Positions 44,301 through 49,635 of a stretch of 64,000 nt of DNA are shown in pieces. The translations under genes were made by a program, and so were the position numbers. The notes beneath the pieces are model-generated. The model was given only the letters and a program-made list of their open reading frames with translations. It was not told the DNA's origin and searched no databases. Positions within the stretch are counted from its first letter, which is position 1. Each line of letters begins with the position of its first letter. This DNA comes from Cristatella mucedo (Eukaryota; Bryozoa; Phylactolaemata; Cristatellidae), in the NCBI GenBank assembly GCA_009760855.2, contig WPIO01000008.1:3222001-3286000 (forward strand). Reading direction: 5' to 3'.

Positions 44301-47300
44301 AGCAGCAGTCAAAGGTCACCAGCGGTGGAGTGAGCGCAGCGAGAGGTCACCAGCGGTCGAGTGAATGCTGCCAGAGGTCACCAGCGGTGGAGTGAGCGAA
44401 ACAAGAGGTCGCCAGCGGTCGAGTGAACCGAGATACAAAATGTAAACGCATTTTCCGTAGCCAAAGAATTTCGTACAAAGTATATTTATTATATAATACC
44501 ACATTGTATAATTATTATTTAATATGGTATATTGTGTAAAATAGTATGGTATATTTATTACATACTATAGTGAATATAGTATATTTTACAAAGTATATTT
44601 ATTAAAAGTTTTCCTTAGCAAAATTATCTTACGAACTTTGCTGGCTCTTCGCGACCCTTTAGCTGACTATATGTACTTTACATCACTGACGCCATGACGT
44701 AGCAGCAGACGATCGATTTGACTATGGGGAAGGCATGCGGCGCCGCCGCTTTATTCCACCTATGGTCGGCGCAGCGCTGCCATTCAGTTGCGGATACTTG
44801 CTGCGTTTTAAAAGGACAAAAATAACAATGCCATCTCTTGCGACAGGTCATACTGAACGCGAAATGCCACGCAATTCGCGACGCCCAAATACTCGAGAAG
44901 AAAGTCGTCAAAGGCGAAATGCAGGGCGAAGAGAAGCGTCTGGACGCCATGATGGAAGTGGACCGAGAGAACGCCGTCCGGATGCAGGAGGAGATCGAGC
45001 GGAAGCGACGCGAGGAGCGGCTCGTGGGCGCCGCGCAGATCCTCGAGCAGATCTCGCAGAACGAGCAGGACAGGTGCGCGGCGGCGGCGGCGGCTTCTCT
45101 CGGCGACCAGCGGCGGCGGCGCCACGCGCGGTTGCGCTTCGGGCAGCAGCGCCTCTGCCGGACCTTTTGCCCTGGAAGGGAAAGCGGACGAAACGGAAGC
45201 AGGGCACTAGCGAGACGCTTTCGTTGGCTGGGAAGGGTTGCTTAGCATGCGTGCCCACCAGCCCTTTGGCGAGCGGATGCGGGTAGCTAGCGCCCAGTGC
45301 CTCCTTAAAGGTCAGTGGACTCAACGGCCTCTCGTTTATATAGTGGCAGAAGAGCCTAGGCGGCCATCTCTTCTAATGGGTGATGCTGTGCGTCCATCTG
45401 CATCTGCTCGGAATAAAGGTGTCGTCTTCGACAGCTGCCTAAACTTTGGAAGCTAAGCGTTGAGAAGGCTGCTTCCACAGCCACAGCCAGTACGTCCCAT
45501 CCACACCAAAGATTAGGAGCTGTCTTTCACGGTGGCTTGCAAAAATTAAACTAGCTCCTTAGTTCTGTTCCGGCTTGATTATTGTAATTCTTTTTGGCTG
45601 GGCTGCCGAAAAAGGCCACTAGGCACTGCAGCTGGCTAGGAATATGGCTGCAAGGCTAGTTTGAAAATCCCAGAGGTTTTACCACGTGTCTCCATCGCTA
45701 AAAAAGCAAGGATGGCTGTCGGTTGATCAACGGAAACAGAGTAAAGTTCTTACGCTGACTCGCAAGTCCCGCCACGACTTGGATTCTTTGTAAGTAGCCG
45801 AACTGCTGCACCAGTTTCAGCCTCCTCGTGACCTCAGGTCCGGTATAGACCATAAATTAGCTGCTCCATTCTTCAGCTTAAAGAACGTTGGCAGCACGAG
45901 CTTTTGCTCTGCAGGTCCCAGACTCTGGAGCTCGCTACCACGATTCCTACGTAAAGACAACTACTGTCCAGCTGCTGACTATGGCACATCATTTCCAGCC
46001 ATCCTGAGCTGCTACTTCCATGTTACTCACTACCTCAACTGCTCTCCTGACTCAGCTATGCTTGTCACTTTCTCTTTGTTGCGGGAGACGAAGTTTGTTG
46101 GCTGCCCAATGCGTATCAAAAGCCGCATTGGTTGTGAGTGCTGCGCTATACAAAACTCTCCAGTGTTACATCCACATGGTCTTTATGGCTTTGTGGACTT
46201 ACAGACGGAGTCACGTTGCATATTGCCACCGCTTGCAGTGGGCAATACAGAATCGGCCTTTGCAGGACTCGAACCCACGACCTAGGTCGTAAAGTGCGAC
46301 CACCTTACCTATGGGTTAAGTCCCAGGAGCTATTTTTAAGAAATCGGAGCCGTGCGAGCTGACGCGTGCACTAGCCCAACCGACGCCAACTAATGCCGAT
46401 TAAGGACAATCTTAAACGAAAATCTACCCGAGCGACCGGATTGAGGAGGCATTTTTCGCGTGATGTCATCCGAGCTTGTTCAAGTCCTGTAGACCCGTTC
46501 CGCCATCTCCCTCTTCCGTTCAGAAAAGGGAGATACATTCTAATTGACCGAGAAGCCGAAGCAAGCAAAAACGTAGAAATCCCAAGCTCTGCACGGCGAT
46601 TATCGCGACTCCGTTCCTAACACTTATTTTCATCGATGAAAAACAGTGTCTTTCTGCCTTTATTGCACTGCTAGCTGCTAGATAAGAGCCAAAATTACGC
46701 GGGTCCGGTGGAGCCTAGAGCTCACGCCTCAGATCTGGAGTGCTCCAGAGTCCAAGCTAGGAAACAACTTCTGCTCGCATTCGCCTCAAAAACGACGACA
46801 CCCTAGGTCTCCGACGATCGCTCGCCGCCTCTTCCTTTCGCAGCTGCGACTGGCGCCCCGTGACCTCACGGCGCGACGAACTGGCCACAAGCTGCCGAGT
46901 CGCGGCGTCCGGCGGCTGAGTCGGCGCCCCTTCGCCCCCGCCGACCCCCTCGCCCTCCTTCCCCCCCCCCCCTGATTGAGGCGGATCGATGACGGCGCTG
47001 CTGAGCGGCGGCGTGCTGAGTGGCGGCTTCGTTCTTGCTGCGACCATCGCAGGCTGTTCGAGCTGGAACGCAAAGATCAGGAGAACATTCAGATGCAGAA
47101 GTATCTCGAGAAGCTCATGGAAGAGGACCGGATGAAGCTCGAGAAGAAGCACCAGGAGCAGACAATCCTGCGGGTGCGTGTGTCGGCGGCGCATGCGCAC
47201 GAGCGCTCTAGCGGCGGCGGTCGGTCAGTCGCCGGCGTTGCCGGCAGTCACGGCCTTTGCTCCCTCCTCCTGTCTTTCTACCTGCGCGCTCTCTCTCTCT

Positions 47301-49635: not shown

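What the first reader, a model, noticed from the sequence alone, without database searches (positions are those of the whole stretch)
46743..47529. Perfect 96 bp inverted repeats enclose CFAP45 exon 6
Both flanking introns carry the same 96 bp in opposite orientation, without a mismatch, 595 bp apart, and exon 6 (121 nt) lies between. Intron DNA this identical is either very young, kept alike by gene conversion, or a pair of terminal repeats of a mobile unit that spans the exon. Paired in RNA, such arms are known to favour back-splicing (circular RNA) or exon skipping. Skipping 121 nt would shift the CFAP45 frame. They could also allow inversion of the exon by recombination. An assembly error is possible.
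Basis: partly seen in the sequence, partly recalled or inferred. Interest (0 to 1): 0.75.

Follow-up and report, generated by a model that had tools for sequence, protein, structure and literature searches.

The report
Young inverted repeat around CFAP45 exon
A 96-base piece of intron has probably been copied recently, in reverse orientation, to the other side of one small exon of a cilia and sperm-tail gene, by a copying slip during DNA replication or repair; it could affect how that exon is spliced, but nothing here shows that it does.

Summary
Two arms, 46743-46838 and 47434-47529, are exact reverse complements (96 of 96), 595 nt apart, in introns 5 and 6 of a CFAP45 gene. Exon 6 (47053-47173, 121 nt) lies between them, intact and in gene orientation. 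Chance is excluded. The arm search of the 572-Mb assembly found only these two copies. No target-site duplication and no homology beyond the arm ends was found. None of 18 inverted pairs in 240 kb of control DNA is perfect, and the 5 control arms examined are multi-copy. This speaks against a transposon and against an old repeat kept alike by gene conversion. Best reading: one recent local template-switch or templated-insertion event copied 96 nt of one intron, inverted, into the other. Which arm is the original is not resolved. In RNA the arms should pair almost completely, so back-splicing or skipping of exon 6 (frameshift, stop after two new residues) is plausible but untested; 121 nt is short for a single-exon circle. 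A clear example of a known mutation class.

The parts
46743..46838 (+). Arm 1, in intron 5 of CFAP45 (96 nt)
   Evidence: exact reverse complement of arm 2
47434..47529 (-). Arm 2, in intron 6 of CFAP45 (96 nt, inverted copy)
   Evidence: only other match in the assembly
47053..47173 (+). CFAP45 exon 6 (121 nt), enclosed by the arms
   Evidence: splice sites and frame; protein alignment with the CFAP45 chain of PDB 8snb
44847..45073 (+). CFAP45 exon 5
47599..47706 (+). CFAP45 exon 7
47833..48140 (+). CFAP45 exon 8 (end set by eye at ..CTCAG|gtacgg, two bases before the end used)
46734..46749 (.). TCTGGAG-tg-CTCCAGA small hairpin straddling the outer end of arm 1; weak hint of a switch point
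   Evidence: a stem of 7 or more bp touches 3.3% of the 2479 local positions tested
46838..46849 (.). TCGCAGCTGCGA palindrome at the inner end of arm 1; weak hint of a switch point
   Evidence: a stem of 6 or more bp touches 6.4% of the 2479 local positions tested

Best explanation
A single recent germline event copied 96 nt of one CFAP45 intron in inverted orientation into the neighbouring intron: a replication template switch (four-point type), or a templated insertion during end joining or microhomology-mediated break-induced replication. Shown: a perfect local inverted duplication with sharp ends, found nowhere else in the assembly, with exon 6 untouched. Inferred: the copying mechanism and the youth. 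In the pre-mRNA the arms very probably pair into a stem with exon 6 in its loop (predicted); any effect on splicing (low-level skipping, back-splicing, dsRNA editing or dicing) is a by-product and is inferred only.
For: Exact 96/96 identity; 2 of 2 genome-wide candidates are these arms, whereas the same kind of search with a control arm from L005 gave 1724 candidates, of which 40 were scored and 40 matched; no homology in 60- or 150-nt flanks beyond shuffles (outer flanks inverted and direct, inner flanks inverted; the lowest of six tests was reached by 78 of 500 shuffles) and no target-site duplication longer than 3 nt; no Rfam match in 44000-50500; in 24 control stretches (240 kb) of the same assembly none of 18 blastn inverted pairs is perfect, best 95.7%, and the 5 control arms examined have 29-54 matches each within the held sequence, the window arm 2. 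Template switching is described as creating perfect reverse-complement repeats in one mutation (PMC8794818, passages; PMC7954356, passages). Small hairpins at both ends of arm 1 are a weak hint at switch points.
Against: No outgroup or second haplotype was available, so the ancestral state and direction are unknown. 96 nt is long: the RNA-gene study reports 59 bp as its largest TSM-like pattern (PMC8794818, passages; that study asked for source and target within 8 bp in its main set, so the comparison is loose). The 595-nt spacing is inside the 'tens to hundreds of nucleotides' searched in PMC7954356, but I saw no length distribution. Arm 2 has no hairpin at its inner end, and the hairpins at arm 1 are not rare locally. 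The longest exact words shared by the two sides of either arm are only 6 nt, so neither site looks clearly like the insertion site.
Confidence: 0.77

Rival explanations
1. Functional RNA element: the arms are selected to pair, so that exon 6 is back-spliced into a circle or skipped in a regulated way.
For: The arms pair almost fully in the predicted fold and sit 214 nt upstream and 260 nt downstream of exon 6, clear of its splice sites; a review gives 30-40 nt as the size of the complementary intron sequences of circularised exons and says that longer ones give more circles (PMC8698871, passages).
Against: A perfect pair found nowhere else is what a young neutral event would leave; no relative to show conservation. 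A 121-nt exon is short for single-exon circles (353 nt as minimal length in PMC8698871; exon length predicts circularisation in S. pombe, and inverted repeats are called not sufficient in mammals, PMC4479058, passages). Skipping gives a stop after two new residues.
Confidence: 0.1
2. Old inverted repeat kept identical by gene conversion between the arms.
For: Perfect identity in intron DNA; arms close enough to interact (inference).
Against: No decayed homology outside the arms on either side; an eroding repeat should leave ragged ends.
Confidence: 0.05
3. Terminal inverted repeats of a mobile element that carries exon 6.
For: Inverted terminal layout only.
Against: Two matches in 572 Mb, no target-site duplication above 3 nt; the enclosed exon is correctly oriented and in frame, and in the two alignments shown (8snb, 7rro) it aligns with CFAP45 without a gap.
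Confidence: 0.01
4. Assembly or library artefact (read-level inverted chimera carried into the consensus).
For: Perfect identity is what an artefact would give; no reads could be mapped.
Against: Flanks of the two arms differ, the exons on both sides are intact and collinear, the whole unit is only 787 bp and lies in a 12.76-Mb contig, so reads of ordinary long-read length would span it (that the assembly is from long reads is inferred); no other perfect pair among 18 inverted pairs of 240 kb control DNA.
Confidence: 0.06

Closest known systems
Short-range template switch mutations (four-point model; PMC7954356, PMC8794818)
   Same: One event leaves a perfect reverse-complement copy near its source; the 595-nt spacing is within the hundreds of nucleotides considered in PMC7954356.
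   Different: The 96-nt copy exceeds the 59-bp maximum mentioned in PMC8794818; no ancestral sequence to fix the four points.
Templated insertions of polymerase-theta end joining / MMBIR (PMC4490562, passages; PMC8421209 seen in the search listing only)
   Same: Insert identical to sequence near the break.
   Different: 96 nt from about 0.6 kb away; no second haplotype to show a deletion scar; typical insert sizes were not looked up.
Small inverted triplications, DUP/IN/DUP (PMC13334657, passages)
   Same: Similar unit size (medians 148/160/148 bp) and an inverted copy.
   Different: Here there are two copies, not three, and the spacer is 595 nt against a median of 30.
Exons flanked by inverted intronic repeats that form circular RNAs (inverted Alu pairs; PMC8698871, passages)
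   Same: Complementary arms in both flanking introns.
   Different: Arms are perfect and not from a repeat family; exon is only 121 nt; no RNA evidence.

Membership tests
Template switch mutation / local templated insertion | reverse-complement copy of nearby sequence with sharp ends | tested here: met
Template switch mutation / local templated insertion | source and copy are local and not a dispersed repeat | tested here: met
   (2 of 2 candidates are the arms), as control for a multi-copy arm
Template switch mutation / local templated insertion | ancestral allele without the copy in a relative or haplotype | not testable with these tools
   no relatives of this eukaryote are held (note); the arm search found no third copy
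DNA transposon with terminal inverted repeats | target-site duplication at the outer ends | tested here: not met
   best shared word at the outer ends, offsets up to 3, is 3 nt
DNA transposon with terminal inverted repeats | several copies in the genome | tested here: not met
   2 matches, the two arms themselves
circRNA-forming exon with flanking complementary introns | complementary arms in both flanking introns able to pair | tested here: met
   95 of 96 pairs in MFE of 46701-47600, mean P 0.996, arm duplex -207 kcal/mol; prediction only
circRNA-forming exon with flanking complementary introns | back-splice junction reads | not testable with these tools
   no RNA data
Small inverted triplication | three copies, outer two direct | tested here: not met
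   two copies only

The most novel reading that the evidence does not exclude
A one-step mutation has newly placed CFAP45 exon 6 in the loop of a 96-bp perfect RNA stem, so that this species makes a new exon 6 circle or a dose-reducing skipped transcript: a natural case of a circularisable exon born by a single replication error rather than by transposon insertion.
Probability: 0.12. Interest if true: 0.55.

Novelty: new member of a known kind. Interest (0 to 1): 0.3.

Why it matters
It is a clean example of a perfect inverted duplication that spans an exon and was produced, as far as the searches show, without a transposon. If RNA data showed back-splicing or skipping, it would tie a single replication error directly to a new splicing outcome. 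Otherwise it is an ordinary, if neat, mutational scar.

Tried and rejected
Mobile element with 96-bp terminal repeats: rejected on copy number and lack of target-site duplication. Staggered-break inversion of the 595-bp middle: would leave exon 6 on the wrong strand; it is in sense and in frame. Small inverted triplication: three copies needed (for the definition, for the count). A class of similar spaced inverted repeats in this genome: one search showed pairs of about 70-106 nt in L005, L017 and L020, but these are copies of one multi-copy repeat with an ATT-rich end, not relatives of this pair. Five control arms (from L004, L005, L017, L020, L022; 5 of the 18 control pairs) were examined this way, and all five hit stretches of one shared repeat family; the other 13 pairs were not examined. 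That the repeat is LINE-like is my reading of its translation and tail from memory; no family search was answered. Short hairpins at the arm 1 ends as proof of direction: too common locally (3.3% and 6.4% of 2479 positions). A 12-of-15 likeness between the DNA right of arm 2 (from 47530) and a stretch left of it (near 47401), seen by eye as a possible direct duplication, was not tested and not used; the script's longest exact shared words were 6 nt. Known RNA families: none in 44000-50500 at E up to 1. The survey of perfect inverted repeats in 118,019 genomes (PMC13155455, passages) takes spacers up to 8 bp only, so it gives no rate for this layout. CFAP45 circular RNA in print: one search asked for CFAP45, circular RNA, intron, inverted repeat (any two); 0 of the 8 papers listed, of 14,076 that hold two terms, holds CFAP45; this is no proof of absence. 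Direction of copying, organism and relatives could not be settled.

Full report
Observation. The next exact inverted match of the window (start-to-start under 20 kb, low-complexity words left out) has 29 nt. A chance match of this size in 64 kb has an expectation near 4e-49 from base composition. The pair is real sequence structure, not coincidence.

Gene context. Reading frames and splice sites give exon 5 (44847-45073), exon 6 (47053-47173), exon 7 (47599-47706) and exon 8 (47833-48140) (exon 8 end corrected by eye to ..CTCAG|gtacgg). Their joined protein (255 aa) matches CFAP45 chains of solved structures, best 8snb_3W with E 1.9e-71 over residues 2-255; 10 distinct sequences matched at E up to 1e-5 and all 10 are named CFAP45 or FAP45; the two alignments that I had printed (8snb, 7rro) have no gap in the main stretch. 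That 8snb is from sea urchin and 7rro from cattle is recalled, not from a call. Exon 6 is therefore present, in sense and needed for the frame: exon 5 to exon 7 joining reads ..NEQDRSN*.

What the arms are not. A whole-assembly search with the arm found two candidates and both are these arms. The search tool warns that very common words are skipped, so serves as a control: an arm of an inverted repeat 50 kb away (L005) gave 1724 candidates, of which 40 were scored and 40 matched. The arms thus look like otherwise single-copy DNA duplicated once. No target-site duplication above 3 nt exists at the outer ends, and flanks of 60 and 150 nt (outer flanks inverted and direct, inner flanks inverted) show no homology beyond shuffles; in the six tests 78 to 463 of 500 shuffles reached the score. 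No Rfam family matches in 44000-50500.

Background rate. Exact-match scanning of 18 control stretches (180 kb of the same assembly, low-complexity words left out) found no perfect inverted repeat over 50 nt within 5 kb. A blastn scan of all 24 control stretches (240 kb) plus the window, at E up to 1e-6, listed 23 inverted pairs within 6 kb, 18 of them in control DNA and 5 in the window; only the pair in question is 100% identical, the best control is 95.7%. Five control arms examined are multi-copy, 29 to 54 matches each within the held sequence, and belong to one repeat family; the window arm has 2. The other 13 control pairs were not examined for copy number. These controls are small, and 21 of the 24 stretches lie on one contig.

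Origin. One event that copies 96 nt from one intron to the next in inverted orientation explains perfect identity, sharp ends, lack of other copies and an untouched exon. Template switch mutations are described as creating perfect reverse-complement repeats in a single step (PMC8794818, passages; PMC7954356, passages), and germline end joining by polymerase theta in C. elegans leaves inserts identical to sequence close by (PMC4490562, passages). The copy is longer than the largest pattern mentioned in PMC8794818 (59 bp); the spacing is within the tens to hundreds of nucleotides considered in PMC7954356. Zero differences in 96 nt bound the divergence at 3.1% (95%), which says recent but not how recent, since the mutation rate of this organism is unknown. 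Arm 1 has a 7-bp hairpin across its outer end and a 6-bp palindrome at its inner end, arm 2 a 5-bp stem at its outer end and none at its inner end; stems of at least 7, 6 and 5 bp touch 3.3%, 6.4% and 10.2% of 2479 local positions, so this is only a faint hint that arm 1 was the template.

Consequences. Folding of 46701-47600 pairs 95 of the 96 arm bases with their partners, mean probability 0.996; the arm duplex alone is worth -207 kcal/mol. The splice sites of exon 6 lie 214 and 260 nt inside the arms, so they are not part of the stem. A review gives 30-40 nt as the size of complementary intron sequences, more circles with longer ones, and 353 nt as the minimal exon length of single-exon circles (PMC8698871, passages); exon length strongly predicts circularisation in fission yeast, and inverted repeats are said not to be sufficient in mammals (PMC4479058, passages). 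The arms thus speak for, and the 121-nt exon against, a single-exon circle; skipping would give a truncated product. I consider an RNA effect possible and unproven.

Limits. No reads, RNA, haplotypes or relatives were available; the genome search with the 1.1-kb region did not complete because the service was busy, nor were the gene-wide searches.

Noticed in passing
window 11240-11540: Perfect trinucleotide run, 100 copies of TGC (CTG/CAG repeat) without interruption. I read 600 nt around it in six frames by eye; no gene search was made.
   Followed up: partly
window 9167-9406: Tandem array of 5.3 copies of a 45-bp unit, 98% matches.
   Followed up: no
window 45368-46210 and 50889-51734: Two relics in opposite orientation, 80% alike over 856 nt, one in CFAP45 intron 5 and one beyond the last CFAP45 exon that I recognised; LINE-like by eye from the translations, not by a family search.
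   Followed up: partly
L005 6906-7011 / 7695-7800, L017 490-585 / 1159-1247, L020 6158-6227 / 6698-6767: Inverted pairs of one multi-copy repeat with an ATT-rich end make inverted repeats of about 70-106 nt, spaced about 470-680 nt; the L005 arm has 1724 candidate places in the assembly, 40 scored and matched.
   Followed up: yes
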